From positions 1 to 45,467 of the forward strand of contig NZ_JACHWU010000011.1 of the NCBI RefSeq assembly GCF_014191605.1: 45,467 nucleotides of DNA. Reading direction: 5' to 3'. This DNA comes from Prauserella isguenensis. Its GTDB lineage: Bacteria > Actinomycetota > Actinomycetes > Mycobacteriales > Pseudonocardiaceae. The position numbers and the translations under genes are program-made. Numbering within the stretch: position 1 is the first letter of the stretch; the number at the start of each line of letters is the position of its first letter. Positions 33,237 through 45,467 of this stretch are shown here, piece after piece. The notes under the pieces are model-generated. The model saw only the letters and a list, made by a program, of their open reading frames with translations, searched no databases and had not been told where the DNA came from.

Positions 33237-33245
33237 GGTCAGCTC

Positions 33246-33371
33246 CTAGTCGAGTCCGTGTACCGGGCAGTCGCGGTTGATCACCGCTCCCGTCTCCGGG
33301 TGTAAGGGCGGGACTCTGCAGATGCAGCCCCGCTCGCGCAGGTCGTCGAACGTGAGGGTGTCGTCAGACAT
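33246..33371 (-). CDS. 41-aa Cys-containing microprotein
   Basis: ATG 33371 with AGGAGA 8 nt upstream, stop TAG 33246-33248. The product has LRERGCICRVPPLHPETGAV and RDCPVHGLD: C-x-C and a later Cys and His, which could bind a metal. Short, but the ribosome site, codon pattern and tight packing between neighbours (10 nt to 33236, 19 nt to 33390) support a real gene. Confidence 0.6.
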   Translation of the reverse strand: MSDDTLTFDDLRERGCICRVPPLHPETGAVINRDCPVHGLD

Positions 33372-33389
33372 CGGGTGTCTCCTGACAGG

Positions 33390-33614: not shown

Positions 33615-34359
33615 CGACGCCTCCGGTGACCTCGGGGAGCAGCAGACTCGCGGTGGCCGCGGCGATCGCCAGCAAGCACAGCGGCGTGACCAGCCAGTTC
33701 TCGACCTTCCCGCCGGTGCGGAACCGCAGAGCGCGGGGCGGGCGGACTTCGTAGTAGGTCTCCCCGGCGATCGGGATCGGGAACAGGATCGGGGCGCCGG
33801 AGAGGGTGATCATGTCGCCGAGGGTGTGGACCAGGCAGCCCAGCCCGGCGGCCACACCGACTGCCGCGGACAGTTCGCCGATCTCGGCGATCATCGCGGC
33901 CGGGGTGGTGCCGGTGCCCAGCCACAGGGCCAGCAGGCCGGCCACGAGGCCGAGGAGCCAGCCGCCGAGGCGGTCGACGGCCAGCAGCACGCCGAACACC
34001 GCAGCCGCCACGGGCACCCAGGCGGTGAGCGTGCCGGCCCAGCCGAGCACCACACCCACCAGCACGGCAAACAGCCCCGTATGCGTGACCGTCCGGTGAA
34101 CCCCTTGCTCGTCGCGGGGGCCTTTGGTGGCGCGGTAGATCAGGCCGCTGCCCGTGCGCACCAGCCAGGACAGCAACCGTGTGACCGGGCCCAGCAGCCT
34201 CGAGGCTGACGAGCTCGGGTGGTCGAGGTCGGGCACGATCGCCCACCCGGCAGTGATCACGGCGAACACGGCGGCGTGGGCGAGGGTGTCGAGTCCGGCC
34301 AGGGGTGCGGCGGCGAGGCCGGCGGCGGCGCCGGTGAGGGCGTGGGTGCGGCCCATCAT
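33604..34359 (-). CDS. Membrane-bound metal-dependent hydrolase (YdjM/DUF457 family)
   Basis: 251 aa, ATG 34359, with ATG 34356 next to it. MMGRTHALTGAAAGLAAAPL with a conserved His, AIVPDLDHPSSSASR with the Asp-Asp-His metal site, VHRTVTHTGLFAVL and GCLVHTLGDMITLSGAPILF are the classical motifs; several membrane helices surround them. The fold is that of a lipid-phosphate or peptidase-like membrane hydrolase of unknown substrate (in E. coli YdjM is LexA-controlled). Its ATG overlaps the upstream HTH gene (ATGA). Family assignment is firm, role in transfer unproven. Confidence 0.85.
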   Translation of the reverse strand: MMGRTHALTGAAAGLAAAPLAGLDTLAHAAVFAVITAGWAIVPDLDHPSSSASRLLGPVTRLLSWLVRTGSGLIYRATKGPRDEQGVHRTVTHTGLFAVLVGVVLGWAGTLTAWVPVAAAVFGVLLAVDRLGGWLLGLVAGLLALWLGTGTTPAAMIAEIGELSAAVGVAAGLGCLVHTLGDMITLSGAPILFPIPIAGETYYEVRPPRALRFRTGGKVENWLVTPLCLLAIAAATASLLLPEVTGGVDVG

Positions 34360-34631
34360 GCCCCGGCCCTCCGCCGTCGACGTCGGTGTTGCCGCACCCC
34401 CGCACTCGTCACGCCGAGGCGGAGTGCGATGGCGGTCGTGTCGAGCCCGGCGGCCTCGAGGGTGGCCAGCTGGTCCGGGTCGATCGCGGGCCGCACCGGT
34501 GGGTAGGTGTGCAGCACACCCTCGGCCGCGGCGGCGGTGCGGCAGGTCTGGTCCAGACCGCGGGTGGCGTGCCGGCGTCGGGCGGTGAACGGTCTGCCGC
34601 AGCGGCGACAGGCACCGGGTCGGTGCAACAC
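34356..34631 (-). CDS. Small HTH protein with N-terminal Cys motif
   Basis: 91 aa from GTG 34631; a TTG next to it is possible. ACRRCGRPFTARRRHATRGL is a short CxxC segment, and the C terminus TIALRLGVTSAGVRQHRRRR is a helix-turn-helix with a very basic tail (the same frame continues RRRRAGA). It may bind DNA or RNA. It is coupled to the downstream hydrolase gene by an ATGA overlap. Confidence 0.55.
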   Translation of the reverse strand: MLHRPGACRRCGRPFTARRRHATRGLDQTCRTAAAAEGVLHTYPPVRPAIDPDQLATLEAAGLDTTAIALRLGVTSAGVRQHRRRRRRAGA

Positions 34632-34739
34632 TGGAGATTCGCCCCCTTTCTCAGGTGGGGTGAGTTGGTCACCGGGTGCGGCGCAGGTGGTGCTGTGGAA
34701 GGTGCGTCCGCGCCGCACCCGGCAGATCCGGCAGATGGG

Positions 34740-35738
34740 TCAGTCGACGAGCGCGAGGTCCCGGCGGCGCAGCACGGTCTGGGCGTGCCGCTCGTCGTAG
34801 TCGGCCGTGGCCATGGCCAGGGCGCCCCAGCCGGCGGCGATCACCGCCAGCACGGCGAACACGGCCGAACCGGTGGCGCCCAGCAGCAGCAACGCGGCGG
34901 CGACAGCGGCACTCGAGGCGATGACCTGGAACGCCACCACCTCCCGGTCGCACTGGTGTCCCAGTGCCGAGCGCCACTCGATCCATGCCCGCGAGCCCGG
35001 GGTGAGGCGCTCGACCGTCTCGGTCAGCTGCCGGCGCAGCCGGACGAGTTCGCCGTTGGGGGCGTCGGCTGCGACGGCGGCATGCAGCAGCGCCTGCTGC
35101 CGGTCCATCCGCGTGCGCAGCTCGGCCTCGTCGTCGCGCCGCACCCGCGACTGCGGAGTGGGCAGCTGTACCAGGCCGATCATGGTGAGCAGGGCCAGCG
35201 CGGCGCCGGTCGTACCGGCCGCCAGAGCGGGTGCGGCCGGATCGGCCCCGCCGTAGGCGAGGGCGGTGGTGGCCGCGGCCCAGCCCAGCCACAGTACGAG
35301 GCACACGAGCCCGAGCCGGTGGGCCGTGGACGAGGCGATCCACAAACCGGCCCCGGCTGCTGCCCAGCACAGCAGCATGACCAACGGGTCGAACCCCGCC
35401 GCGGGCGCGTGCAGGTCGAACCAGAGGGTGATCGGCATGACCGCGGCCGGGTAGAGCACCTGATCCCAGAATCCGGCGGCGCCGTCGGCGACCACGCCGA
35501 ACAGCCACGCCACACCGCTACCCAGGACATCGCCCAGCGCGATCGCCGCCGCGACCGCCGCCGCGGCGGCGAGCACAACGCCCGCGATGGCGCCGACTTG
35601 GGTCCGCCGGGTGCCGTCCTCCCGCAGGGAGCCGGCAGTGGTGGTGATCCGTTCTCGCATACCGGTGATGCGGTCGGCCGCCGCCGACAGCGCCGGCGAG
35701 TACGGCTCGATCGAGAGTTCGTGACGTTGCGGGTGCAT
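34740..35738 (-). CDS. Polytopic membrane protein of the transfer region
   Basis: 332 aa from ATG 35738. Multiple membrane segments are seen: AIAGVVLAAAAAVAAAIALG, LVMLLCWAAAGAGLWIAS, LGLVCLVLWLGWAAATTALA, AALALLTMIGLVQL and a final pair VAAALLLLGATGSAVFAVLA. A central charged coiled segment (RRDDEAELRTRMDRQQALLH, LVRLRRQLTETVERL) separates the halves. It resembles the large membrane proteins that accompany TraB in Streptomyces-type elements, but no named family is assigned. A terminator with a 14-bp stem lies upstream. Confidence 0.65.
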   Translation of the reverse strand: MHPQRHELSIEPYSPALSAAADRITGMRERITTTAGSLREDGTRRTQVGAIAGVVLAAAAAVAAAIALGDVLGSGVAWLFGVVADGAAGFWDQVLYPAAVMPITLWFDLHAPAAGFDPLVMLLCWAAAGAGLWIASSTAHRLGLVCLVLWLGWAAATTALAYGGADPAAPALAAGTTGAALALLTMIGLVQLPTPQSRVRRDDEAELRTRMDRQQALLHAAVAADAPNGELVRLRRQLTETVERLTPGSRAWIEWRSALGHQCDREVVAFQVIASSAAVAAALLLLGATGSAVFAVLAVIAAGWGALAMATADYDERHAQTVLRRRDLALVD

Positions 35739-35800
35739 CAGCGAGCAGGTCCTCTCTGCAGATATGTGCTGACCAGATGCGTGGGAGTGGGCAGAAAAGC

Positions 35801-35839
35801 GGCTGGGCCGGAGCCCGTGGAGTGAGCTCCGGCCCAGCC
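35801..35839 (-). terminator. 14-bp hairpin terminator with 11-nt loop
   Basis: GGCTGGGCCGGAGC (35801-35814) / GCTCCGGCCCAGCC (35826-35839), perfect, loop of 11 nt reading TCACTCCACGG on the minus strand. On that strand GCTTTTCTG follows, so it terminates transcription from 35873. The loop shares CCACG with two other hairpins in this operon. Confidence 0.7.
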
Positions 35840-35872
35840 GGATAGTTCGAATCGAGGGTTGTCCGTGCCTGA

Positions 35873-36061
35873 TCAGCACGGTGTCGCGACGTCGCAGTAA
35901 CTGCCGCCTGCGAACACGGCCTTCTCCATCGGGCGGAGCCACTGGTCGGTGTGCTCGCCGCAGGCGTAGTCACGGGATTCCGGACGGCCGGAGGCATCGC
36001 GCGTGACCTGGGTGTGGGTCGCAGGAAGGTCGCACCAGCTGCAGGCGGGTCGGCGGGTCAT
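35873..36061 (-). CDS. 62-aa Cys-rich small protein
   Basis: ATG 36061 with AAGGAGAA upstream. RRPACSWCDLPATHTQVTRD, YACGEHTDQWLRPMEK and SYCDVATPC carry six cysteines and two histidines, a probable zinc-binding fold. It follows the TraB/FtsK gene across a hairpin and a tiny upstream frame. Role unknown. Confidence 0.65.
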   Translation of the reverse strand: MTRRPACSWCDLPATHTQVTRDASGRPESRDYACGEHTDQWLRPMEKAVFAGGSYCDVATPC

Positions 36062-36086
36062 GGTGGGTTCTCCTTCGGTACGGGGG

Positions 36087-36227
36087 TCACCAGCGGACGA
36101 GTTCGGTGTGGTCGATGTCGCCGTCCAGGCAGCGTTGATGCAGCTCGCGTTGCTGGGCTGCCAGTTCTGGGGGCGCGGCTTCCCACACGTCGCACGGGCC
36201 GTCGATGTCGCCTCCCGAGTACGGCAA
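36087..36227 (-). CDS. Possible 46-aa protein with TTG start
   Basis: A frame ending at TGA 36087-36089 has gene-like codons (G/C in most third positions): GGDIDGPCDVWEAAPPELAA, then QQRELHQRCLDGDIDHTELV and RW. No ATG or GTG precedes it; TTG 36227 is the only start and has no clear ribosome site. The competing frame from ATG 36247 gives unlikely protein. Either a real microprotein or the remnant of one. Confidence 0.4.
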   Translation of the reverse strand: MPYSGGDIDGPCDVWEAAPPELAAQQRELHQRCLDGDIDHTELVRW

Positions 36228-36270
36228 CGGCGTGTTCGTAGGCGCATGAGGTGGGGCCTTTCGAGACAGA

Positions 36271-36309
36271 GCGAGGCCGGGACTCTCACGTGGACAGTCC
36301 CGGCCTCGC
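36271..36309 (-). terminator. 14-bp hairpin after the translocase gene
   Basis: GCGAGGCCGGGACT (36271-36284) / AGTCCCGGCCTCGC (36296-36309), perfect, 11-nt loop reading GTCCACGTGAG on the minus strand. It lies 24 nt after the TraB/FtsK stop. No T run follows, so it may be an RNA-processing or stability element rather than a strict terminator. Confidence 0.6.
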
Positions 36310-36332
36310 CGGTGGAAGGTGTGCGGTTGTGG

Positions 36333-38591
36333 TTATTCGACGACGGCGTATTCGCCGCGCCCGGTGCGTTCGATCTGCTGGTCGCCGACCAGCGCGTTGA
36401 GTGCACGGTCGATCGTGGCGCGGCTGGCCTTGTTGGACATCGCTGTTTCCAGGTCGGCCACGCGTGTGGTGCCGGCGGCGATGAGTTCGTACACGTGCCG
36501 CTGGGTGGGATCGGCGATCGTCCCGCCGTCACCATCGCCGTCGGTGCTGGTGCGGGGCGTGCCGAACCCGGACTTGCGCACCCGACGCGTCCCGGACTTG
36601 GTGTCCTGCTCCTCATCGCGGAACCGGTGAGTGCCGCCGACGCCGATGATCCACCGGCCATCTGCGTTGGGCTCGCCCAACGCGGCCACCAGGGCGTCGT
36701 ATTCGACCTGGGTCAGGCCGGGCTCGGTGACGTAGGCGTCCCACGCCGCGCCGGCCCGCCACGGCGGCTCGTCGCCGTCGACCGGGTCGTCGTCAGCCGG
36801 CAGCCAGTCCCACTTGGCCGGCACGTTCGCCCGGCGAGTGTTCACCCCGACGCCGAAGCCCGGGATGGGCTGTTCGTCCTGCCCGAGGCCTGCTTCGTCT
36901 TCGTCGTAGGTCGGCAGGGTCGAGGGCCGGTAGGTCAGCCCGTTGATCAGATCGTCGGACGAGGTGTTGAGGTAGAACACGAACGCCTGCTTGCCCCATG
37001 CAGCCCGGTTGTTCGTCCCTGCCCACGCCGATCCGTGCATGTCGTGCGCGGTGACCACGGGCCAGATGCCCAGCGACCGGGCTGTGGTGGACAGGTTCTC
37101 GGATTCCTGGGCGAACTTCGGGTCGGCCTTGATGCCCTTGGCAATCTCCTCGATGAACAGGAACCAGCCGGGACGATCCGCGGTGGGGAACTGCTTGTCC
37201 CGCGGGTCGTTCTGGAGCCGGGTCGTGGTGAGCAGGTGGAGCAGCTTGCGCACGTCGGTGGTGGCATCGCGGCCCACCACCACGATCCGCGCCCGACTGC
37301 GCAGCATCCCCGAGCTGTTGCCCTTGAAATCCACATAGATGGAGTTCAGCAGGCCAGTGCTCAGGGCACCGATCGTCAGGGCGTTAGACGCGGCAGACTT
37401 TCCTGATCCGGTACCGCCGTAGATGGTGGTCGGCACCATCCCGTCCGTGGTCCACATCGTGCACTGAGCCTCGCCCTGCCCATCACGGAACCGCGCGAGA
37501 TTGGTCAGCACGGCGGCGGTACCGTCCGGCTTCATCTGTACGTTCGGACCGCTCCAGTGGCGCACGCCAGCAGCCACGTCACGGACGATGATCGTCAGGC
37601 GTGCCCGGTTGGCCGGTTTGAATCCGTCCTCGTTGGCCTTGGGCGGCTCCACAATGACCTGCTGAGAATCCAGGCCGAGCGTCCCGGCGATCTTCTCGGT
37701 GGACTTCATGACGGTCGAGTTGGTCACTTCGCCGGTCAGCTCGATGTCATAGCGGATGATGTTGTCATCCGCGGTGCGGTTGGTGAGCACGCCGAAGCCG
37801 GAGGGCAGCTTCTTCCACGCCAGCGCGTACGGGTCCCGCTCGACCGGCGCCGCGGCCGGGCCGCTGGGCGCCGGCGCCGGAGCGGGCTGCGGCGGGGACA
37901 GCGGCGCCACGTCCACGCCGAGCGCGTTCTGCGGCGATCGCCACCACCGCGCGCCCAGCATGACCGTGCCCAACAGCAGTGTCAGCACAACCAGCGCAGA
38001 CACCCCGGAGGTTGCGATCCAGAAGATCACCGCGCCCCCGCCGAGTCCGGCCAGTGTGACCTCGACCAGCCACCGCCGGTGCGTAGGTTCGGGCGGCTGG
38101 TCGCCGCGCCGGTCGGCGAGCGTGACGTGCTGACGGTGCACGCGCTCCATGCGCCACGCGCAGCCCAGCGCCACCACCGGCCCGGCAGCGGCGAACACGG
38201 CCGCCACCACGAGCATCGACACGCCCAGGCCGGACAGCAGTGCGGCCACGCCGGAACCTGCCAGGCCCAGCGTCAGGACGGCGAGGGTGGCGTACCAGGG
38301 GCGGCGGCGCCGCCGGTTGCGGTCCCGCACCATTCCCTTCCGCTTGGATTCGGCCAGCTGGTCGGCCGACGGCCGCTCCGTCTCCTTCTGCTGCGGTTCC
38401 TGCAGCTTCGCGGCCACGCGCAGGTTCTGCTCGGTCGACAGCCGCCGGCCGCCGCCCATGCCGGCCGCCTTCTTGAACTTGTCGGTGCGCTGCTGCTTGG
38501 CCTCGGCCTTTTCCTTCTCAGCGGCCTGCTCGGCCAGGCGCTGCAGGTCGGCGGAGGTCAGCTTGCTCACGGGGGTGGCGGTCTTCGACAT
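36333..38591 (-). CDS. TraB/FtsK-type DNA translocase of conjugation
   Basis: 752 aa from ATG 38591. A charged cytoplasmic N terminus precedes four membrane helices (AVLTLGLAGSGVAALLSGLG, MLVVAAVFAAAGPVVALGCA, AGLGGGAVIFWIATSGVSAL, VVLTLLLGTVMLGARWW). The motor has Walker A IYGGTGSGKSAASNAL (about 389-400), LLNSIYVDFKGNSSG, Walker B GWFLFIEEIAKGIKAD (about 474-489, Glu-Glu) and SLGIWPVVTAHDMHG. The C-terminal winged helix (THVYELI-like, then DLETAMSNKASRATIDRALN, QQIERTGRGEYAVVE) matches the DNA-reading domain of TraB proteins that recognise 8-bp repeats. TraB alone moves double-stranded plasmid DNA between actinomycete mycelia without a relaxase, which fits the absence of one here. Confidence 0.88.
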   Translation of the reverse strand: MSKTATPVSKLTSADLQRLAEQAAEKEKAEAKQQRTDKFKKAAGMGGGRRLSTEQNLRVAAKLQEPQQKETERPSADQLAESKRKGMVRDRNRRRRRPWYATLAVLTLGLAGSGVAALLSGLGVSMLVVAAVFAAAGPVVALGCAWRMERVHRQHVTLADRRGDQPPEPTHRRWLVEVTLAGLGGGAVIFWIATSGVSALVVLTLLLGTVMLGARWWRSPQNALGVDVAPLSPPQPAPAPAPSGPAAAPVERDPYALAWKKLPSGFGVLTNRTADDNIIRYDIELTGEVTNSTVMKSTEKIAGTLGLDSQQVIVEPPKANEDGFKPANRARLTIIVRDVAAGVRHWSGPNVQMKPDGTAAVLTNLARFRDGQGEAQCTMWTTDGMVPTTIYGGTGSGKSAASNALTIGALSTGLLNSIYVDFKGNSSGMLRSRARIVVVGRDATTDVRKLLHLLTTTRLQNDPRDKQFPTADRPGWFLFIEEIAKGIKADPKFAQESENLSTTARSLGIWPVVTAHDMHGSAWAGTNNRAAWGKQAFVFYLNTSSDDLINGLTYRPSTLPTYDEDEAGLGQDEQPIPGFGVGVNTRRANVPAKWDWLPADDDPVDGDEPPWRAGAAWDAYVTEPGLTQVEYDALVAALGEPNADGRWIIGVGGTHRFRDEEQDTKSGTRRVRKSGFGTPRTSTDGDGDGGTIADPTQRHVYELIAAGTTRVADLETAMSNKASRATIDRALNALVGDQQIERTGRGEYAVVE

Positions 38592-38611
38592 GGCCGGAGA
38601 TTCCTTCCTGG

Positions 38612-39091
38612 TCAGAGCGCGGAGGTGGGGTTCAGTGAGGCGTCGTAGAGGGTGTTGTGCACCGCTTCGACGTGCGGAATGTCGGTGAACGTCAGCGGTT
38701 CTTCGCTCATGGCTTCGACGATGAGTGAGCCGCAGCCGAAGATCCGGTCGTTGAGGTCGTGCTCGTAGCGCACGGACGTGATGCGGCGGATCGGAATGTT
38801 CATCCCGGACCGGCGCAGCACCCCTTCGCGGAACATGACTTTCTGGTCGGTGACGACGAAGTGGGTGGTTTTCCATCGCACGATCGGCGCGCCCACCAGC
38901 ACGGAAAGGCCGATCAGCGCGGCGGCGGCGACGATGAGGCCGGCCTCGGCGGGCACGGCGGCCATGAGTGCGGCCGCGGCGACCGCGAGTACGGCGCCGC
39001 CCAGGCCCGGCAGGATCAGGCACTTCCAGTGCTGGTGGGAGTGCACGAGCACGGTCTCGTCATCGCCGATCTGATCGAACGGGTACGACAT
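38612..39091 (-). CDS. PH-domain (bPH2/YdbS-like) membrane protein
   Basis: 159 aa, ATG 39091 with GAGAGGAG upstream. Two membrane helices (CLILPGLGGAVLAVAAAALM, GLIVAAAALIGLSVLVGAPI) are followed by a bacterial PH domain: KTTHFVVTDQKVMFREGVLR, SGMNIPIRRITSVRYEHDLN and CGSLIVEAMSEEPLTFTDIP. The family sits in membranes and binds partners or lipids. It lies 20 nt upstream of the translocase start on the same strand, so it is probably co-expressed with it. Confidence 0.8.
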   Translation of the reverse strand: MSYPFDQIGDDETVLVHSHQHWKCLILPGLGGAVLAVAAAALMAAVPAEAGLIVAAAALIGLSVLVGAPIVRWKTTHFVVTDQKVMFREGVLRRSGMNIPIRRITSVRYEHDLNDRIFGCGSLIVEAMSEEPLTFTDIPHVEAVHNTLYDASLNPTSAL

Positions 39092-39144
39092 CGCTGGCTC
39101 CTCTCAAAAGAGTGGTGGGGTGCGGTGCTGGCGTCGCGGCGAGC

Positions 39145-39173
39145 AGCCAACCCAGCCGTGGGCCGGGTTGGCT
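39145..39173 (-). other. 9-bp intergenic hairpin with 11-nt loop
   Basis: AGCCAACCC (39145-39153) / GGGTTGGCT (39165-39173); the 11-nt loop reads GGCCCACGGCT on the minus strand and shares CCACG with the hairpins at 35801 and 36271. It lies between the helical gene (39200) and the PH-domain gene. Confidence 0.6.
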
Positions 39174-39199
39174 GGTCACCGTGGCGGCAGCCGCGCGGG

Positions 39200-39493
39200 T
39201 CAGTCCCGGCCGAGCGAGGACTTGTTGCCGACCATGCGGTTGGCCGCGCGGGCCTCGCTGACTCCCTGGGCCAGGCCGACCTTCTCGGCGACCGCGGCCA
39301 GCGCGTCGCGGGCCTGGTCCAGCTTCATGCGCGCTTCGGCCAGGCCGTCGAGGTTTTCCCACTCGCCGGACTCGAGGTCCTGGTGCAGCGCGATGTTGGC
39401 CTGCTGCATGTCTTCGAACTCGTCCACGGCCTGCTGCACCTGGCCCTTGATCTCCTCGGGGCTGGCCGTGCCGTCCATCGGCGTCGTACTCAT
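39200..39493 (-). CDS. Helical protein, WXG100-like in shape
   Basis: 97 aa from ATG 39493 with AAAGGA upstream. It reads as two long helices separated by a short turn holding Trp45: EEIKGQVQQAVDEFEDMQQA, LHQDLESGEWENLDGL, then AEARMKLDQARDALAAVAEK. Length, helix pair and central Trp fit the WXG100 shape, though the exact W-x-G is absent (WEN). It lies close to the FtsK-like translocase, and type VII secretion also pairs FtsK-type motors with such substrates. The alternative is a simple coiled-coil accessory protein. Confidence 0.5.
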   Translation of the reverse strand: MSTTPMDGTASPEEIKGQVQQAVDEFEDMQQANIALHQDLESGEWENLDGLAEARMKLDQARDALAAVAEKVGLAQGVSEARAANRMVGNKSSLGRD

Positions 39494-39543
39494 CGGCTGT
39501 GTCCTTTCTGGAACGTGCTGATCGGGGAATCGAGGTGGAAAGG

Positions 39544-40689
39544 TCAGACGAGGGCGGCCTTGTCCGGTGCCCACGGCGCCTCGTCGTAGGCATCGTTGAC
39601 GCGGTTGCCTTCGGCGAGGATCTGCTCGGCCAGATCGCTGTAAACGGTCGACACCTGACCCAGCGCAACCCGCATCTCGGCCAGCGGCTCGGTCACCTCG
39701 GCGCCCCAGCCAACACCGCCCATGTCATCCGACAGCTGCGCCAACGCAGCCGCGTAGCCGTCGATCTCATCGGCGTGGTTGTTCAGCTTCTGCGCAGCCT
39801 CCTGATACACGGTTCCTCCAGTCGTTGCGGTCGTTCCAGTCGATTGAGCAGGCACAACAGGAGTCGATGCGGTGCCCGTGGGCGTGCTGCTCATCTGCTC
39901 GTAGGGATCGATCGCCGGCGGCTCGTCGGGGTTGATCGCCGGCGGCTCGTCGAATGCGGATTCGGTGACGGGCGTGCTGTCGTGGCCGGTGGACTGGCGC
40001 AGACGCTGCCGGTGGCCGTCCTGGCCAACGACTTCCAGCTTGCCGCCGTTTGCTTCGGCCTCGGCGATCAGCTCGTCCCGCAGGTCCGACGGCAGCGCAT
40101 TCCACGCCTCGGCGGACATGTGCTTCTTGTTCTTGCGCAGCGATTCGCGCCAGGACTGCATCCGCTGGGTTTTGTCGTCGTCCTGGGCCTGCGCCCGCTG
40201 CCCCTTGTCAATCTCGGCCTGCTCGGTCTGTTGAGCTGCTTCGGCATCACGGCGGGCGTTCTCGTCCCAGGCTTCGCGTTCCTGACGTGCGGCGATGGGG
40301 TGGGCCAGAATGCCGCGTGCGCGGGCGAACTTCTCGGCCCGCTTTTCCGACTTGATGAGCTTGTTGGTCTGCTTCTCGCGCCATTTCTGGTCGCGCTGCG
40401 GGGCTTGCTCGGCGAACCATGCCCGCCAACGGCGATGCTTGTCGTCGGAACGTTCCTTGGCCTTCTCGCAGGCGTTGGCCCACCGTTGAGACAAGGCCAG
40501 CCGGGTCGCGCCCGGCCCTGTCGGCTTGCCGCTGTCCGCGACCTTCCCGCCGCCCTGTTCCCATTTGCGGCGGTGTTTGACCACCGACGGCGGTTCTTTC
40601 CCGGCCTTGTAGGCGGCCTGCGAGGTGTCCTTATCGAACTTGCCGCGCACCATGTACGTGATCGCGGCAAGTAAGAGCGCCAGCTCCAC
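39544..40689 (-). CDS. Membrane-anchored helical protein with WXG100-like C terminus
   Basis: 381 aa from GTG 40689 with AAGGAG upstream. ELALLLAAITYMV is a short N-terminal anchor; residues about 35-185 are strongly charged and helical (SQRWANACEKAKERSDDKHR, KWREKQTNKLIKSEKRAEKF), followed by a Pro/Thr-rich linker. The last 95 residues form a second helical unit: TVYQEAAQKLNNHADEIDGY, MGGVGWGAEVTEPLAEMRVA and STVYSDLAEQILAEGNRVND, with a G-W328-G turn between helices as in WXG100 proteins. The gene is the second upstream of the PH-domain gene on the same strand. Function unknown. Confidence 0.6.
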   Translation of the reverse strand: MELALLLAAITYMVRGKFDKDTSQAAYKAGKEPPSVVKHRRKWEQGGGKVADSGKPTGPGATRLALSQRWANACEKAKERSDDKHRRWRAWFAEQAPQRDQKWREKQTNKLIKSEKRAEKFARARGILAHPIAARQEREAWDENARRDAEAAQQTEQAEIDKGQRAQAQDDDKTQRMQSWRESLRKNKKHMSAEAWNALPSDLRDELIAEAEANGGKLEVVGQDGHRQRLRQSTGHDSTPVTESAFDEPPAINPDEPPAIDPYEQMSSTPTGTASTPVVPAQSTGTTATTGGTVYQEAAQKLNNHADEIDGYAAALAQLSDDMGGVGWGAEVTEPLAEMRVALGQVSTVYSDLAEQILAEGNRVNDAYDEAPWAPDKAALV

Positions 40690-40731
40690 GAGGCTGCTCC
40701 TTCCTGGTTGAGGACGGGTGGTGTTCGTGCG

Positions 40732-40791
40732 TGCGCCGATCGGGACTCGAACCCGACAACCCACCAGTGGGTGGGCGCCTCGTTACGGCGC
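40732..40791 (-). other. tRNA 3'-end-like segment (T arm and acceptor strand)
   Basis: On the minus strand TCGGG-TTCGAGT-CCCGA (40756-40740) is a perfect T arm, followed by TCGGCGC (40739-40733) and a discriminator A. A CCCACC-CACT-GGTGGG hairpin (40775-40760) lies upstream, and GCGCCGT at 40791-40785 pairs with 6 of 7 acceptor positions. The spacing between arms is too short for a complete tRNA (no normal D arm), so it is a fragment, perhaps an attachment-site remnant. Confidence 0.45.
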
Positions 40792-40807
40792 TGCAGAACG
40801 GGGCGCC

Positions 40808-41290
40808 TCAGACGATCTGGTCCCGCACGGCGTTGCCGAGCGAGGACACGACCCAATCGGCGCCGTTGTAGAACTCGGGAATCACGGCCGCGATCACAGC
40901 GCCGACGACAGCCAGCACGCCGCACAGCAACAGGCCCTTGAACTTCGCGCCCATGCCCGAGCCCTTGGTGGCGATGCCCTTGCCCTTGATGCGGGACGCG
41001 GCCCAGGCGACGCCTCCCAGCACGAGCACGGCGAGCGCGGCCGTGCCGATTGCCTGTCCGGCCCACCGTTCGCCCCAGGACACGGCGGTCGCGCCGCCGT
41101 TGACGATGTGGTTGCCGACCCATCCGGCGGCGCCGCCGAGGGCGCCGAATCCGCCGATCACGGCGATGACGGCGCCGATCTTCGCCCAGGGCGCCCCACC
41201 GGGCATGTCGACCAGGACCAGAATGACCGCCAGCCCTAAGCAGAGCGAGCCGACGTAGGCCATCGAGTTGGGGATGAAGATCTCCCACAT
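40808..41290 (-). CDS. Four-helix membrane protein of the transfer region
   Basis: 160 aa, ATG 41290 with GAAAGGA upstream. About four membrane helices (MAYVGSLCLGLAVILVLVDM, AKIGAVIAVIGGFGALGGAA, GTAALAVLVLGGVAWAASRI, GLLLCGVLAVVGAVIAAVIP) separated by Gly-rich loops. This is the pattern of small Spd-type membrane proteins of Streptomyces plasmids that help intramycelial spread. The short C-terminal loop (NGADWVVSSLGNAVRDQIV) ends next to the tRNA-like segment. Confidence 0.65.
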   Translation of the reverse strand: MWEIFIPNSMAYVGSLCLGLAVILVLVDMPGGAPWAKIGAVIAVIGGFGALGGAAGWVGNHIVNGGATAVSWGERWAGQAIGTAALAVLVLGGVAWAASRIKGKGIATKGSGMGAKFKGLLLCGVLAVVGAVIAAVIPEFYNGADWVVSSLGNAVRDQIV

Positions 41291-41302
41291 GGTTCGTTCC
41301 TT

Positions 41303-41743
41303 TCAGAGCAGTTGGGTGAGGGTGATGAGTACGGCGATGGTCAGTACGAACGCGATCGGCTTGTCGCGGGACCGCAGCACCACATCGAGCGGGTAGGTCA
41401 AGACAAACGACAGGAGCGTGGCCAGGCCGTGCACCGCGCGCTTGGCACCGTTGTCGGCCGCGGCCCAGTCACCGCGCTGGGAGTGCTCCAGCGTTTCGGC
41501 CATCGACGGGGGCCGGGTGGCCATCCGGGGCCGGGCCGCCACCCACCCGACGGCGGCTTCCTTGAGGCGCACATCGATCGGCGCGCGGGCGGCGACGGGG
41601 TTGCCCTCGCTATCGAGGACCGGGACCGGGCCGGTGATCTCCGTGTCGTGCTCAGGTGGCGGTTCTGGCGGGTCCTCGTCGCGAACGACCTGCAAGTCGG
41701 GGCGAGACCCTGGTTCCGGTTGGGTGTCAGTTGCGACGCTCAT
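41303..41743 (-). CDS. Membrane protein with acidic N terminus
   Basis: 146 aa, ATG 41743. The first 50 residues are acidic and Pro-rich; a charged amphipathic section (DVRLKEAAVGWVAARPRMAT) precedes two C-terminal hydrophobic segments (AVHGLATLLSFVLTYPLDVV, KPIAFVLTIAVLITLTQLL). Its start overlaps the stop of the preceding gene (ATGA), so it is made in step with it. A transfer-region accessory protein; no family recognised. Confidence 0.6.
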   Translation of the reverse strand: MSVATDTQPEPGSRPDLQVVRDEDPPEPPPEHDTEITGPVPVLDSEGNPVAARAPIDVRLKEAAVGWVAARPRMATRPPSMAETLEHSQRGDWAAADNGAKRAVHGLATLLSFVLTYPLDVVLRSRDKPIAFVLTIAVLITLTQLL

Positions 41744-42090
41744 GAACGTTGTCTCCGTTCTGCTCGGGCGATGCGCCGCTCCTCGGCGCGGATCGTGGTC
41801 ATGGCGTGTTCGTGCTGGGCGGTGTGCAGCTCCTCGACCAGCGCGGCGATCTGCGCGGTGATCTGGTCCAGCCGCCGGGCCACGCCCGGCGGGTCGGGCT
41901 GGTGCCGCCCTGGCGCCGCGGCCGATCGCAACGCCAGGGCAGCTTGGTTGAACCGCTGCTGCGCCGTGGTGGCGCGGGCGTAGTCGGTGGTGAACCGGTC
42001 CCTCTGGCCCGCCACGCGGGCGACGGTGGCCTGAGCTGCCCGAACTCGCCGGCGCGGACGGGCAGCACCCTCAGCAACGGCAGAAGACAT
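41740..42090 (-). CDS. Basic helical protein
   Basis: 116 aa, ATG 42090 with AAAGGA upstream. Strongly basic and helical throughout (RRRVRAAQATVARVAGQRDR, ARRLDQITAQIAALVEELHT, then RAEERRIARAERRQR), so coiled-coil formation and nucleic-acid contact are likely. It is the upstream partner of the membrane gene at 41303 (ATGA overlap) and divergent from the gene at 42174. Confidence 0.6.
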   Translation of the reverse strand: MSSAVAEGAARPRRRVRAAQATVARVAGQRDRFTTDYARATTAQQRFNQAALALRSAAAPGRHQPDPPGVARRLDQITAQIAALVEELHTAQHEHAMTTIRAEERRIARAERRQRS

Positions 42091-42173
42091 CAGCGATCAG
42101 TCCTTTCTGGAACCACGTGGATACGGCCGGTAATCTCGGAAACGGCCGCACAGCAACGAGGGAGGAACACGAC

Positions 42174-42482
42174 ATGGGGTGGCGCGACCGTGACGAACGT
42201 TTCGAGCTGCACCTGACCCGCAGGGACGGGCAGCGCATCAACCGCCAGCCGCGGGCGGTGACTGAGGTGTTCGAGCTCGACAACGACAAGCAGCGCGAGG
42301 AGGTCGTCGGCAAGCACTTCGTGCACATGGCCGCAGCGGCCGAAGGGCGCACCGTGCGTGACCACCAGCGCATCTCCGAGTTCAGCTCGTGGCTGCCCAA
42401 GTACCAACTGGAGATCTGGCACGAGCGGTTCCCGCACGAGCCAGTGATGGTCTCGACCTCCACGCGCGGCTGGCGCGACTAA
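42174..42482 (+). CDS. Plus-strand hypothetical protein inside the transfer operon
   Basis: 102 aa, ATG 42174 with GAGGGAGGA at 42159-42167. Charged (RDRDERFELHLTRRDGQRIN, EVFELDNDKQREEVVGKHFV), with an aromatic end (SSWLPKYQLEIWHERFPHEP). No family recognised. It is the only gene on the plus strand between 30.4 kb and the end, stands alone with its own promoter space, and ends at a perfect terminator, so it may be a regulator or a separately controlled factor. Confidence 0.6.
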   Translation: MGWRDRDERFELHLTRRDGQRINRQPRAVTEVFELDNDKQREEVVGKHFVHMAAAAEGRTVRDHQRISEFSSWLPKYQLEIWHERFPHEPVMVSTSTRGWRD

Positions 42483-42500
42483 CCCCCTCGCCCCTGCCCA

Positions 42501-42532
42501 GCGCCCCCGCCCTCGAGGGCGGGGGCGCTTTT
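42501..42532. terminator. Perfect 14-bp palindromic terminator
   Basis: GCGCCCCCGCCCTC (42501-42514) is directly followed by its inverse GAGGGCGGGGGCGC (42515-42528) and then TTTTG. It stops the plus-strand gene at 42174; being symmetric, it may also affect readthrough from the minus-strand gene at 42539. Confidence 0.85.
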
Positions 42533-42538
42533 GCATGC

Positions 42539-43576
42539 TCACCGGCGCCACCGGCGGATGGTCGACGGGTTCACCGTGTCGTAGCCGCGCGCCGCCATCC
42601 GCTTGTTGATCTCGGTCGGGCCGAGCCGGTCGAACTCATCGCCGAGCTCGCGGCGGGCGGTCTCTTGGTCAAACGACCGGCCAGATTTGCCCGTGCTCTT
42701 CTTGGGCTTGGCCGCCGGCTTGGGAGCCGGGGCCGGTTCCTTCTCCGTTTCCGGCTGCGGGGCAGGCTGCTGCGGCGCGACGGCGACCGTCTGGCGTCGT
42801 TCACGCTCGGCCAGCTGCCGACGATTGCGCTCGCCGATCTCGTTCTGCTTGACGATGCGGCGCTGTTCGGCCCAGGTCCGCACCGCGCGGCCGGCGGCGT
42901 GCACGAACAGTGCCAACAACACCGGCACCAGCACCGCAGCGCACGTGCCGGACCACGACCAGTGCGCCGGCAGGCCGGCGGCCGCCCCGCCACGGATGTC
43001 GTGGCCGACGAGGTTGAACAGCACCGAGGCGGCCAGGGTGGCCACGACGAGCTGGTGGCCGGTGGTGCGGTAGATGCGGTGGGTGGAGATCGCACCCATC
43101 AGCACACCGCCGACCGTGCCGACATCCACCAGCACCGGAAACAGCGCCGCCATCTCCGGAGACCAGCCGTAGCGCATGGCGGCGGTGCGCATCATGTCGA
43201 ACGACAACGCGAACGCCAGAGCAGCAACGGCCACGGTCAGGGCCATGACGGTGGCGAACGCGCCGGTCGTGATCGGCTCGTCGTCCTCGGCCTTGCGCGT
43301 CTTCTTGGCCTTGGGCGGGCGGGTCCGGAGGGTCGCGGCACGGGCCGAGATCCAGTCGGCAAGCGCCGCACGCACCGTCGTCCCGGACTTCGTATCTCCC
43401 TCACCCGCAGCCGACGAATCCGGCGCGGACTCGGCAGGTTCAGCCGATGCCGGCTGATGTCCAGGCGACGTCGGCGTGGTTGTCGGCTCGTCGGCGTCGA
43501 AATCGAGGCGCGCGACGATCGCGGCGAAGGTGCCGTCGTCGTCGGGCTGGTCATGTGCGGTGGGCTGCGCGTCCAC
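42539..43576 (-). CDS. DUF2637/SpdB-like membrane protein
   Basis: 345 aa from GTG 43576 with GGAGG 6 nt upstream. A Pro/Thr-rich acidic N terminus leads to the DUF2637 membrane region: VMALTVAVAALAFALSFDMM, AMRYGWSPEMAALFPVLVDV, GTVGGVLMGAISTHRIY and AAVLVPVLLALFVHAAGRAV. The C-terminal tail is a basic coiled helix (QRRIVKQNEIGERNRRQLAE) followed by a small HTH-like end (DRLGPTEINKRMAARGYDTV). In Streptomyces plasmids these proteins act in plasmid spread or as regulators with a DNA-binding tail. A structured leader (43608-43682) lies directly upstream. Confidence 0.75.
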   Translation of the reverse strand: MDAQPTAHDQPDDDGTFAAIVARLDFDADEPTTTPTSPGHQPASAEPAESAPDSSAAGEGDTKSGTTVRAALADWISARAATLRTRPPKAKKTRKAEDDEPITTGAFATVMALTVAVAALAFALSFDMMRTAAMRYGWSPEMAALFPVLVDVGTVGGVLMGAISTHRIYRTTGHQLVVATLAASVLFNLVGHDIRGGAAAGLPAHWSWSGTCAAVLVPVLLALFVHAAGRAVRTWAEQRRIVKQNEIGERNRRQLAERERRQTVAVAPQQPAPQPETEKEPAPAPKPAAKPKKSTGKSGRSFDQETARRELGDEFDRLGPTEINKRMAARGYDTVNPSTIRRWRR

Positions 43577-43607
43577 AGCAAACCTCCAAGAGCTGTACGG
43601 AATGGCT

Positions 43608-43682
43608 TCGGCGGCCTGGGAAACGCTCACCGCCGTGGCCGTCGGGGGATTTCGGCCGCGGTGAGCGCTCCCCCGGTGCCGA
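43608..43682 (-). ncRNA. Structured leader RNA element, copy A
   Basis: 75-nt element in the 5' leader of the DUF2637 gene, starting 10 nt after the preceding stop. On the minus strand: TCGGCACCGGGGGAGCGC, then a stem TCACCGC/GCGGTGA with an inner GGCCG/CGGCC hairpin, then GCGTTTCCCAGGCCGCCGAA. The end blocks are identical to copy B (44571-44639), while the stem differs but still pairs. Possible pairings: P1 TCGGC/GCCGA, P2 GGGGA/TTCCC, P3 variable. Confidence 0.65.
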
Positions 43683-43691
43683 AACACCAGG

Positions 43692-43901
43692 TCAGGGGCG
43701 GTTGTCGATCACGGTTACGCCGATGCCAGCGACGGCACCGACCGCGATGCCGGTCACGCCGACCAGGTCGTTGCCGGTGGCGGTAGCAACGGCGATGCTG
43801 GCCAATGGCGCGGCCGCGGCGATCCCCGCCAGCACCAGGAACACGGCCAACAGGCCGATCGACATGACCGGCTCGTCGGTGTCGAGGTCGGGTTCAGGCA
43901 T
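43692..43901 (-). CDS. Small two-helix membrane protein
   Basis: 69 aa, ATG 43901, overlapping the end of the upstream gene by 8 nt. Acidic N terminus (PEPDLDTDEPVM), then two membrane helices: GLLAVFLVLAGIAAAAPLAS and VGVTGIAVGAVAGIGVTVI. Typical small Spd-like plasmid membrane protein. No named family. Confidence 0.65.
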   Translation of the reverse strand: MPEPDLDTDEPVMSIGLLAVFLVLAGIAAAAPLASIAVATATGNDLVGVTGIAVGAVAGIGVTVIDNRP

Positions 43902-44136
43902 GGCTGGCGTCCGTGGCGGTCAGCAGCTCCCGGCCGTACGGGGTGAGCTGCGCGGCAACCGAACCGACCGGGCCAGTCGCGTTGAGCACGATGCAGCCGG
44001 TCAGCAACAGCGACGCCAGTGCACCGTCCTGCTCGCGACTCGACGGGAATCCGTCGACGTCCAGCTGGGCAGTGGCCCCGCAGGTGACCCGGCCTTGGTC
44101 GATGGCGGCGAGCAGCGATTCAGCCACAGCGCCCAC
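43894..44136 (-). CDS. Small hypothetical protein
   Basis: 80 aa from GTG 44136 (a GTG stands just before it at 44139), CGAGG close upstream. Overlaps the upstream gene by 17 nt. Sequence such as ESLLAAIDQGRVTCGATAQL, ASLLLTGCIVLNATGPVGSV and LTPYGRELL resembles a small winged helix (the pattern ends in a GRELL strand), similar in layout to the 119-aa neighbour. Possibly a DNA-binding protein. Confidence 0.5.
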   Translation of the reverse strand: MGAVAESLLAAIDQGRVTCGATAQLDVDGFPSSREQDGALASLLLTGCIVLNATGPVGSVAAQLTPYGRELLTATDASHA

Positions 44137-44479
44137 CACCTCGGGAGGTGTAGGCCTTGAACCCGCGCCACCGGCCAACCAGGACGTCTCCGTCCGGGGT
44201 GAGCTGCACCGTGCGGCCGTCGACGTCACCGAAGAAATCGCCTTCGACGTAGCCGGAATCGACGAGCTGGTCCAGGAACCGGACCTCGACGTCAGTGGCC
44301 CGGCGTCCGTCGACAAGGTAGGACCCACCGTCGGTGGAGAGTTCCACGCGGCCGTCTTTGACGGTGTGCAGCATGCGGTGCACGTGCCAGAGGTTCGGCA
44401 GCGAGCCTCCTGCCGCGTCGATCGCTTCGGTGCCGTCGGGCTGGCCGATGATCGGGTCCGGGCTGGCTATGGTGGTCAT
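44120..44479 (-). CDS. Small hypothetical protein, winged-helix-like
   Basis: 119 aa from ATG 44479 with GGAGAA upstream. HRMLHTVKDGRVELSTDGGS, RFLDQLVDSGYVEGDFFGDV and VQLTPDGDVLVGRWRGF give a helix-strand-turn pattern with a wing-like VQLTPDG. Structured leader copy B lies upstream (44571-44639), between this gene and whiB. Its 3' end overlaps the 80-aa gene. A regulatory role in transfer would fit, but is unproven. Confidence 0.5.
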   Translation of the reverse strand: MTTIASPDPIIGQPDGTEAIDAAGGSLPNLWHVHRMLHTVKDGRVELSTDGGSYLVDGRRATDVEVRFLDQLVDSGYVEGDFFGDVDGRTVQLTPDGDVLVGRWRGFKAYTSRGGGRCG

Positions 44480-44570
44480 GCGGTTCTCCAATCGCAGTGT
44501 TCGGCCCCCGCCCGTGTGCTTGGCGGCTATCGGCGGGGCCGAACTGTGTGCAGAGGCAGGCCGTTGGTGT

Positions 44571-44639
44571 TCGGCGGCCTGGGAAACGCACCGGCGGTGA
44601 TCTGCGGGCGCATGTGCCGGTGCGCTCCCCCGGTGCCGA
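44571..44639 (-). ncRNA. Structured leader RNA element, copy B
   Basis: 69-nt element that starts directly after the whiB stop, in the 5' leader of the 119-aa gene. On the minus strand: TCGGCACCGGGGGAGCGC, stem ACCGGC/GCCGGT, then GCGTTTCCCAGGCCGCCGAA. The outer blocks are identical to copy A; the inner stem is different in sequence but still pairs, which supports an RNA structure rather than a chance repeat. Confidence 0.65.
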
Positions 44640-44891
44640 TCACCGGGTCTGGGCGGCCTCCCAGAGTTCGTGGCGCCAGATGGCGGCGCGGTCGTCCTCG
44701 GTCAACCCGCCCCAGATGCCGTGCTCGATCCGGGCGGTCAGGGCCTCGTCTGCGCAGTCGGCCTGCACCGGGCAGTCGTGGCAGATCTCCAGGGCACGCT
44801 CGACGTTCACCGGGGTCTGCGGGGCGAAGAACAAGTCGGCGTCCTTATGTCCTCGGCAGGCGGCGGACAGGCGCCAGTCAGCGGGCATCAT
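44640..44891 (-). CDS. WhiB-family iron-sulfur regulator
   Basis: 83 aa, ATG 44891 overlapping the upstream stop (ATGA). Four cysteines at 12, 37, 40 and 46 (SAACRGHKD, EICHDCPVQADCADEAL) form the [4Fe-4S] site, followed by the WhiB turn EHGIWGGLTEDDRAA and a basic end. Such proteins are redox-sensitive transcription factors found only in actinobacteria and their phages and plasmids. As second gene of the transfer operon it probably controls the operon. GGGAG stands upstream. Confidence 0.93.
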   Translation of the reverse strand: MMPADWRLSAACRGHKDADLFFAPQTPVNVERALEICHDCPVQADCADEALTARIEHGIWGGLTEDDRAAIWRHELWEAAQTR

Positions 44892-45136
44892 GCGGCAACT
44901 CCCATCTGGTCGAGGTCGTGCGGCTCGACGCCGCGGGCGGTCGGTAGCGCGAGAACCGGCGCCAACCGAGCGCGACGGTCGCGAAGGTCAGTGGCTTCGG
45001 CTTGCTCGGCAAGCAGCGCCTCGATCAGGGACTGGGTGTCGTCCCAGGCCTCGTTCTCAAGGGCGACCAGGTCGGCGTCGGTGGGCTCGAGGCCGGGCAA
45101 GTCGACGGCGAGCGGGTCGATGGTGTTCACGGACAT
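44888..45136 (-). CDS. First gene of the transfer operon, acidic helical protein
   Basis: 82 aa, ATG 45136 with GGAGA upstream. Acidic and helical (PTDADLVALENEAWDDTQSL, then IEALLAEQAEATDLRDRRAR), ending HDLDQMGVAA. It is coupled to whiB by an ATGA overlap. No family recognised; a small partner of WhiB is a guess. Confidence 0.6.
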   Translation of the reverse strand: MSVNTIDPLAVDLPGLEPTDADLVALENEAWDDTQSLIEALLAEQAEATDLRDRRARLAPVLALPTARGVEPHDLDQMGVAA

Positions 45137-45467
45137 GTGATCTCCAATCCAGGCGAGTACGGGTCAGAAACGACTTGGCGGATCTCGCCGCTACCCAGAC
45201 ACCGCGTGGGGCCTAGGCAGCAGCGGCACCCGCCAAGCGGGTGCGTGTCCCGCCTCATGCCCAGCCACGTCGGGCGGAGCAGTGGAGGCGGGGGTGTCGT
45301 CTCGCGCTCTGAAGTTCGGCCGATGCACCGGCCCGGTTCGTGGTGGCGGCCCCGGGAGCTTGAGCAGGCGACAAATGCGGTTCTCAGGCCCGGTCAGGCG
45401 ACCACCCCGGACGGGGATCGCTGGCTCAGTGCCGATGGGGTCGGACCATTCGGCTCTGTCCTGTCTG
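45137..45467. other. Upstream region of the transfer operon, no gene seen
   Basis: 331 bases to the window end. GCACCCGC-CAA-GCGGGTGC (45226-45244) is a tight hairpin, and CCCGCCTC (45249-45256) is inverted at 45285-45292 (GAGGCGGG). The operon promoter should lie here; I cannot point to a clear -35/-10 pair. A further gene may begin beyond the edge. Confidence 0.5.

What the first reader, a model, noticed from the sequence alone, without database searches (positions are those of the whole stretch)
43608..44639. Two structured leaders with identical ends and a covarying stem
Copies at 43608-43682 and 44571-44639 share an 18-nt 5' block and a 20-nt 3' block exactly; the stem between them is different in sequence and length (TCACCGC/GCGGTGA versus ACCGGC/GCCGGT) yet pairs in both. 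Each starts right after an upstream stop and leads into the next gene of the transfer operon. This is the signature of a conserved RNA or its protein target, and I cannot match it to a known riboswitch.
Basis: seen in the sequence. Interest (0 to 1): 0.82.

Follow-up and report, generated by a model that had tools for sequence, protein, structure and literature searches.

The report
Hairpin RNA of plasmid transfer operons
The two look-alike stretches belong to an apparently undescribed family of folded RNA elements that sit between the first genes of plasmid-transfer operons in one family of soil bacteria, so far always in the company of one membrane-protein gene whose output they may help to set.

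Summary
On the minus (coding) strand, 44570-44639 and 43607-43682 share an 18-nt 5' end and a 20-nt 3' end exactly and enclose different stems that both pair. A covariance model finds 19 copies on 13 replicons, all in one bacterial family (Pseudonocardiaceae). The lower stem covaries (28 two-sided cells against 10.2 shuffled, 0/500). In 13 stem pairs x 19 copies there are 16 G.U and 1 A.C cells, so the sense strand is what folds. No Rfam family fits. The copies lie between early cistrons of an FtsK-type transfer operon, mostly beside one gene (c1: predicted helical membrane protein with an HTH-like C-terminus). In 90 genomes c1 and the RNA occur in the same five. Two named plasmids found through c1 carry two copies each, before and after c1. 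A conserved 5' flank can pair with the invariant CACC, giving a second fold that excludes the outer stem. Mechanism is inferred: an intercistronic hairpin that partitions the transcript; antitermination and a translation-coupled switch are live rivals. New RNA family, function unproven.

The parts
44570..44639 (-). RNA element copy 1 (18-nt 5' end, ACCGGC/GCCGGT stem, 20-nt 3' end), just after the WhiB stop
   Evidence: R2 80.2 bits
43607..43682 (-). RNA element copy 2 (same ends, TCACCGC/GCGGTGA stem), between the 69-aa ORF and c1
   Evidence: R2 71.1 bits
44630..44646 (-). alternative 5' hairpin P0 of copy 1 (CCGGUG...CACCGG); contains the WhiB UGA; excludes the outer stem
   Evidence: local fold -9.2 kcal/mol; in nascent but not full-length minimum-energy fold
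43673..43690 (-). alternative 5' hairpin P0 of copy 2 (CUGGUGU-UUCG-GCACCGG)
   Evidence: local fold -8.2 kcal/mol
42539..43576 (-). c1 gene: membrane protein (DUF2637 match, E 2e-7) with C-terminal HTH-like tail; its family keeps company with the RNA
   Evidence: AlphaFold2 model of a homologue
44640..44891 (-). WhiB-type regulator gene upstream of copy 1
   Evidence: Pfam WhiB E 1.1e-20
44120..44479 (-). 119-aa ORF downstream of copy 1 (no Pfam family at E <= 0.01)
43692..43901 (-). 69-aa ORF upstream of copy 2 (no Pfam family at E <= 0.01)
44500..44544 (-). second GC-rich hairpin between copy 1 and the next start codon; not part of the conserved motif
   Evidence: seen in sequence; a different hairpin at the same place in the P. 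rugosa-like locus
36333..39023 (-). FtsK-type ATPase ORF of the transfer operon (start codon uncertain; no Pfam match, FtsK-type by my reading of its Walker-type motifs)
   Evidence: cluster c0, 11 of 11 loci

Best explanation
The two elements are copies of a cis-acting structured RNA in the polycistronic transfer (tra) mRNA. As each emerges, its 5' end first forms a short hairpin (P0, GGUG...CACC); once the 3' strand is made the whole 62-97 nt folds into one long hairpin with a conserved base (GCACCGGGG facing CCCAGGCC: an outer stem, an asymmetric internal loop, a G.A mismatch, then a long stem whose letters are largely free as long as they pair). In 14 of 19 copies it starts 0-18 nt after the end of an upstream ORF, and in 14 of 19 the next start with a Shine-Dalgarno-like stretch is 30-90 nt further on. 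I think it works as an intercistronic boundary: recognised at its conserved base by a protein, it divides the tra transcript into separately stabilised or processed segments and so sets how much of the early genes, above all c1, is made relative to the rest. SHOWN by computation: conservation, covariation, sense-strand folding, position, and company with the c1 gene family. INFERRED: that the long fold acts at RNA level in cells, that a protein reads it, and that the output is mRNA partition. My confidence that it is a genuine sense-strand RNA family is about 0.9; the figure below is for the partition mechanism.
For: Nineteen copies on 13 replicons at E <= 0.001; of 285 lower-stem cells 90.9% are standard pairs, 28 cells changed on both sides against 10.2 shuffled (0/500), and slid registers fall to 23-49% paired. 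Stem cells: 214 Watson-Crick, 16 G.U, 1 A.C, 16 other. The 15 matches in 11 of 390 family genomes all lie in tra operons with the FtsK-type gene and c1. c1 profile and RNA share the same 5 of 90 genomes; the seven FtsK operons fetched without the RNA (one cut short) show no c1 on the operon strand at E <= 10; the FtsK tree needs 4 changes for the label and puts RNA-bearing G339 next to RNA-less G041 (100/100), so the link is to c1 more than to the ATPase lineage. Prediction test: two plasmids found by c1 protein carry two copies each, one just before and one after c1. A third plasmid with a DUF2637 gene has, by eye, a diverged but alike hairpin directly upstream of it. In five loci a different conserved-ended long hairpin (motif 2) takes the place after c1; counting it and one diverged copy, 8 of 11 loci have long conserved hairpins on both sides of c1, which fits a boundary role. 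No U-tract follows the stem in the 15 copies printed.
Against: No expression, probing or binding data exist here. RNase III-type processing or 3' protection needs little sequence conservation (recalled), yet CACCGGG and CCAGG are the same in all 19 copies, which asks for more specific recognition or a functional second fold. In the window and the P. rugosa-like locus copy 1 lies after WhiB, several ORFs before c1, and the Kutzneria-like copy lies one ORF before c1, so bracketing of c1 is not universal; in AmyC, AmyR and pAS20800 the copy after c1 lies about 165-370 nt past its stop. Two of five covariation measures do not clearly exceed shuffles (further pair types 479/500, pairs changed on both sides 24/500). 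Pair 5 is unpaired in 11 and pair 13 in 12 of 19 copies. FU40's hairpin is not found by R2 at E <= 1. On the FtsK tree 48 of 500 shuffled labels need as few changes as the RNA label, so part of the pattern may be descent.
Confidence: 0.42

Rival explanations
1. A processive-antitermination RNA: near the start of the long tra operon the nascent element (perhaps as P0 plus the upper stem, two adjoining hairpins) modifies RNA polymerase so that it reads through later terminators or Rho sites, like put, EAR or the conAn2 RNA of pLS20.
For: Position within about 3 kb of the apparent start of an operon of roughly 10 kb in the 11 loci (my reading); conjugation operons of the pLS20 family start with such a system (PMC8955417, passages); P0 is in the nascent minimum-energy fold in 14 of 17 copies.
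Against: In the window no excess of terminator-like sites was found (6 against 4.5 expected on both strands of 32000-45467; of the three on the coding strand one is strong and lies past the ATPase gene), although U-poor actinobacterial terminators are not covered by that scan. Two copies 1-1.6 kb apart in one operon and copies after c1 are not needed for it.
Confidence: 0.2
2. A translation-coupled or protein-gated conformational switch: P0 and the outer stem are alternatives, and a ribosome finishing the upstream cistron, or the c1 protein, decides which forms, changing access to or decay of the downstream cistron.
For: The 18-nt P0 region folds in 17 of 17 copies examined (median -8.6 against -2.0 kcal/mol in 5678 control windows; 12 of 17 reach -8, controls 2.0%). 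Where the A of CACC is changed, the partner is changed too: GGCG/CGCC in Prug.2 and GGGC/GCCC in AmyC.1v, and CCGC/GCGG in the plasmid of Amycolatopsis sp. FU40 (by eye). P0 is lost in the full-length fold in 16 of 17. An upstream ORF ends 0-18 nt before 14 of 19 copies.
Against: P0 has a C.A mismatch in AmyR.1 and pAS20800.1 and a bulge in SthxP.1. The strict 4-bp test was met in 11 of 17 (control rate 2.9%), and the weakest P0 (-3.8) is reached by 22% of controls. The fold window was chosen after P0 was noticed. The full hairpin is more stable by 0 to 16 kcal/mol, and the next Shine-Dalgarno is in neither fold. The three copies with altered P0 letters are diverged in the main hairpin.
Confidence: 0.2
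3. A DNA-level site: a hairpin in single-stranded DNA or a recombination or binding site for c1's HTH-like domain or another plasmid protein, with RNA folding incidental.
For: c1 has a predicted three-helix C-terminus that I read as HTH type and stands next to the element; membrane protein SpdB2 binds DNA without specificity and SpdA2 binds 12-bp palindromes in Streptomyces plasmids (PMC4170104, passages).
Against: A duplex operator explains neither the covarying stem of free sequence and length nor 16 G.U to 1 A.C on one strand. All 19 copies lie in the sense orientation between cistrons of one kind of operon.
Confidence: 0.08
4. An ordinary attenuator or U-less terminator that simply lowers downstream expression.
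For: Long GC-rich hairpin after a stop codon; further strong hairpins follow in some loci.
Against: No U-tract after the stem in the 15 copies printed; invariant internal-loop letters are not expected; the operon needs transcription beyond the element.
Confidence: 0.1

Closest known systems
conAn2 RNA / EAR / HK022 put (processive-antitermination RNAs)
   Same: structured RNA that acts on a long operon; conAn2 stands at the start of a conjugation operon, EAR in exopolysaccharide operons (PMC8955417, passages)
   Different: no Rfam match to any family; several copies spread between cistrons; antitermination not tested; terminators not found in excess
Intercistronic stabilising or processing hairpins (recalled: puf-type hairpins, RNase III sites)
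   Same: long hairpin next to an upstream stop codon inside an operon
   Different: here the base of the hairpin is conserved letter by letter and an alternative 5' hairpin is kept
sps palindromes bound by SpdA2 in Streptomyces plasmids (PMC4170104, passages)
   Same: repeated palindromic element of actinobacterial plasmid spread genes tied to one protein
   Different: sps is a 12-bp DNA palindrome in spdA genes; this is a 62-97 nt covarying RNA hairpin between genes
SpdB2-type membrane proteins (for c1)
   Same: integral membrane protein of a TraB-type transfer system with DNA-binding ability (PMC4170104, passages)
   Different: no sequence comparison made here; c1 has a predicted HTH-like C-terminus

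Membership tests
Any Rfam 15 family | match to a covariance model | tested here: not met
   one gathering-level match in the window, abiF, elsewhere; only sub-threshold matches, all with E of 0.05 or more, in relaxed scans of window 43400-44900 and nine relatives
Structured cis-acting RNA (generic) | compensatory changes supporting the helix | tested here: met
   28 cells, 6 of 15 pairs, 0/500 shuffles for cells and score (24/500 for pairs, 479/500 for pair types); slides far lower
Structured cis-acting RNA (generic) | strand preference for the transcribed strand | tested here: met
   16 G.U to 1 A.C; z-scores of the two window copies; 19 of 19 copies in sense orientation
Processive-antitermination RNA | early position in a long operon | tested here: met
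Processive-antitermination RNA | terminators inside the operon that are read through | tested here: inconclusive
   6 terminator-like sites against 4.5 expected; U-poor terminators not covered
Processive-antitermination RNA | readthrough activity | not testable with these tools
   needs a reporter or in vitro transcription
Intrinsic terminator | U-tract right after the hairpin | tested here: not met
   3' flanks printed for 15 copies, none U-rich
Metabolite riboswitch | multi-helix aptamer domain with conserved pocket | tested here: not met
   single hairpin (or P0 plus hairpin); no Rfam match; unknown riboswitch classes cannot be excluded this way
RNase III / stabilising intercistronic hairpin | long duplex between cistrons | tested here: met
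   25-36 base pairs in 15 folded copies, position
RNase III / stabilising intercistronic hairpin | cleavage or altered half-life | not testable with these tools
   needs RNA end mapping
Recombination site of attC type | cognate recombinase and exchange of cassettes between sites | not tested
   gene blocks between paired copies differ among loci, but no recombinase link was looked for

The most novel reading that the evidence does not exclude
A new RNA-protein regulatory module of conjugative plasmids: a bistable mRNA element whose nascent P0 hairpin and final long hairpin compete, coupled to termination of the upstream cistron, and read by the membrane-bound c1 protein, so that assembly of the transfer apparatus at the membrane feeds back on the tra transcript.
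Probability: 0.15. Interest if true: 0.82.

Novelty: new variant of a known kind. Interest (0 to 1): 0.62.

Why it matters
Regulation of DNA transfer in actinobacterial FtsK/TraB-type plasmids is known mainly through repressors (recalled). A dedicated, covarying RNA family between the first tra cistrons, tied so far one-to-one to one membrane-protein gene and with a second conserved hairpin family in the neighbouring slot, would put an RNA layer into that control and make it testable by mutating and restoring a single stem. It also gives a model (R2) that can mark this plasmid group in draft genomes.

Tried and rejected
IMG/VR: three pattern scans gave 0, 2 and 2 contigs; the four matches did not fold into the motif and, by eye, look coding; they were dropped. 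BLASTN of the two elements against plasmids gave no record covering 80% of the query and only short pieces, judged chance. Matches outside the family in the order search (4 of 397 genomes, E 0.009-0.1) did not show the structure and were dropped. R2 on the seven RNA-less operons gave two weak matches in one locus (L069, E 0.49 and 0.84); the second lacks the long stem and looks coding (by eye), the first was dropped on its alignment. Sub-threshold R2 matches in the held loci other than Prug.2 and AmyC.1v (12 of 29 at E <= 5, several on the opposite strand of a true copy) were not pursued except one at the Kutz c1 stop, which proved to be motif 2. Whole-model fold search of c1 against the PDB gave nothing at E <= 0.001, and the SacA FtsK-type protein matched no PDB chain by sequence at E <= 0.01. 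Of the two c1 proteins given to Pfam, the window's matches DUF2637 and SacA's has no match; FU40's is annotated DUF2637. One search had a pattern error (replaced), a register error in its pair count (replaced; its P0 folds stand), one search stopped on an error (replaced).

Papers: searches. Seen: PMC8955417 and PMC4170104 as passages only; all others as search listings. No paper describing this RNA or DUF2637 in conjugation turned up in those searches, which cover open-access text only.

Full report
THE OBSERVATION. The genes at the right end of the window run on the minus strand. Read that way the two elements are TCGGCACCGGGGGAGCGC - variable stem-loop - GCGTTTCCCAGGCCGCCGAA at 44639-44570 and 43682-43607. 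The blocks are exact and found nowhere else in the window at 3 mismatches (expected 0.02 and 0.42), and a 14-nt core occurs exactly only twice in the own genome. The minus-strand RNA folds far better than shuffles (z -6.7, -5.6), the plus strand less so (-3.0, -2.5). Copy 1 starts directly after the stop of a WhiB gene (Pfam E 1.1e-20); copy 2 lies between a 69-aa ORF and a membrane-protein gene with a DUF2637 match (E 2e-7), here called c1. Rfam has no family for them.

RELATIVES. One further genome with the exact pattern turned up among 200 of the same family. A model of three copies (R1) searched in 346 family genomes gave 11 genomes with a match at E <= 0.1, of which the own genome and five others held structures I accept. 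A pattern scan of named genomes gave five contigs, all of genera of the Pseudonocardiaceae (placement of Prauserella, Saccharomonospora and Kutzneria recalled; Amycolatopsis and Saccharothrix as). Model R2 (11 copies) gave 11 of 390 family genomes at E <= 0.1, with 15 matches, all accepted; 9 of 397 in the order, of which 4 outside the family, all rejected by eye; and only the own genome of 246 in the class at E <= 0.02. These large searches use strict filters that lose weak matches. The final set is 19 copies at E <= 0.001 on 13 replicons, plus two diverged copies in place (29.4 and 20.8 bits) and one diverged hairpin in a plasmid of Amycolatopsis sp. FU40 that R2 does not find at E <= 1. Eleven replicons come from genome assemblies; of these 7 carry one copy at the threshold and 4 carry two; both named plasmids carry two.

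STRUCTURE. In 19 copies, 90.9% of 285 lower-stem cells pair; 28 cells are changed on both sides (shuffles 10.2, 0/500), covariation score 0.295 (0.141, 0/500); sliding the 3' side by 1-3 columns drops pairing to 23-49%. Against this, further pair types (479/500) and the number of pairs with two-sided change (6; 24/500) do not clearly exceed shuffles, pair 5 is open in 11 and pair 13 in 12 copies, at pair 13 always as G.G. The alignment was fitted to the model, but the two arms are ungapped there. Over 13 consecutive stem pairs per copy there are 214 Watson-Crick, 16 G.U, 1 A.C and 16 other cells; an earlier count on 15 copies and 10 pairs gave 126, 15, 0 and 9. Copies are related, so these are not independent, but the G.U cells fall at five stem positions (13, 14, 15, 19 and 20). 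CACCGGG on the 5' and CCAGG on the 3' side are the same in all 19.

SECOND FOLD. Just 5' of the element lies a short stretch, usually CGGU or GGUG, able to pair with CACC(GG). Eighteen-nt windows there fold at -3.8 to -10.3 (median -8.6; 12 of 17 at -8 or below) against a median of -2.0 in 5678 control windows, of which 2.0% reach -8 and 22% reach -3.8. The window was chosen after the pairing was noticed. A strict four-pair test is met by 11 of 17 (control 2.9%). Three copies in which the CACC letters differ keep a pairing with altered partners; AmyR.1 and pAS20800.1 have a C.A mismatch and SthxP.1 a bulge. The P0 pairs are in the minimum-energy fold of the nascent RNA in 14 of 17 copies and absent from the full-length fold in 16 of 17; forcing P0 costs 0-16 kcal/mol. 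So P0 is at least a conserved folding possibility and perhaps a switch state; this is computed, not observed.

CONTEXT. All 11 loci found through the RNA share an FtsK-type ATPase gene (c0), c1 and c2 (c2 weakly in two); c3-c5 occur in 9, 8 and 7. Of the 15 copies in them, eight lie directly before c1; four lie after c1 (immediately in SacA and SacP, about 165 and 370 nt past its stop in AmyC and AmyR); two follow WhiB; the Kutzneria-like copy lies one ORF before c1. In 14 of 19 copies an ORF of 40 aa or more ends 0-18 nt upstream (one of these, at AmyR.2, has no coding-like composition), and in 14 of 19 the next start with a Shine-Dalgarno-like stretch lies 30-90 nt downstream; in the other five it lies at 144 and 152 nt or was not found within 200. 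A GntR-type profile (c8) hits in 7 of 11 loci. The window's first two genes (GntR, GNAT acetyltransferase) have the same order as in plasmid pAS20800, so the window contig is probably a plasmid of this kind, though its ends do not overlap.

LINK TO c1. An FtsK search of 90 genomes gave 14 with a match. Seven operons without the RNA were fetched; none shows c1 on the operon strand at E <= 10, though one (G028) ends before the region. On the FtsK tree the RNA label needs 4 changes, at least 2 forced by supported branches, but 48 of 500 shuffles are as low, so descent explains part of the pattern. A c1 profile found 5 of the same 90 genomes, exactly the five that carry the RNA, whose 390 genomes appear to be all those held for the family. 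The profile was built from RNA-adjacent genes, so very distant c1 relatives without RNA could be missed. The independent test went the other way: c1 as a protein query against plasmids gave two records, and R2 then found two copies in each at E 5e-8 to 2.3e-6, one just before and one after c1. One copy changes pair 12 from G-C to A-U, another breaks it to A.C. An AlphaFold2 model of one c1 (mean pLDDT 72.5, pTM 0.47) shows four long helices and a confident three-helix C-terminus; no PDB match at E <= 0.001. HTH-like is my reading of that shape and of the RRW-type tail.

MECHANISM. The facts fit a cis element of the tra mRNA that marks a boundary between cistrons, near the upstream stop and clear of the next ribosome-binding site. 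In five loci the slot after c1 holds another conserved-ended long hairpin (motif 2, six copies); counting it and the diverged AmyC copy, 8 of 11 loci have conserved long hairpins on both sides of c1. I favour partition of the transcript by protein-bound hairpins (0.42). Antitermination as in put, EAR and conAn2 (PMC8955417, passages) is the best-precedented rival; a P0-based switch is the most interesting; a DNA role is least likely given the strand bias. Nothing here measures function.

NOVELTY. I found no Rfam family and no paper on it in the searches named (65, 66, 68, 106). It is a new RNA family of a known kind (cis-acting intercistronic RNA), seen so far in one bacterial family and one plasmid type.

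Noticed in passing
L028, L044, L045, L046, L047 (after c1), e.g. L045 near 7779 minus: A second conserved-ended long hairpin (GAUCCGCCCGUA - variable stem - GAGUCGGACGGCUC, motif 2): six copies in five loci, in the slot where other loci carry a second copy of the first motif. Not seen in the window by that pattern; no compensatory count made.
   Followed up: partly
window 11756-12018: Four copies of a 31-nt repeat (CGTGCTCCCCGCGC.AGCGGGG.TGATC) at 61, 78 and 61 nt spacing and a partial fifth 42 nt on: looks like a short type I-E CRISPR array (type recalled).
   Followed up: no
window 23389-23424 and 22458-23363, minus: abiF RNA (Rfam RF03085, 38.4 bits) directly upstream of an Abi_2 gene (Pfam E 3.1e-31).
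   Followed up: no
window 5040-5282: Three 81-bp tandem repeats rich in inverted repeats shortly before a DnaB-type helicase gene; may be an origin region.
   Followed up: no
window 8524, 10011, 10050, 12046: Four copies of a palindrome of the type GGGTGTTTACC..GGTAAACACCC, possible operator sites, around a TnpB-like ORF at 9921-11681.
   Followed up: no
window 42117-42482, plus: A small ORF on the opposite strand between c1 and the next tra ORF, with relatives in two other loci (cluster c11); a terminator-like hairpin with a T-rich tail follows it at 42508-42527.
   Followed up: no
stem positions 13-18 of the RNA: In the stem, nearly fixed and freely varying pairs alternate (14, 16, 18 nearly fixed; 13, 15, 17 vary). 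I have no explanation.
   Followed up: no
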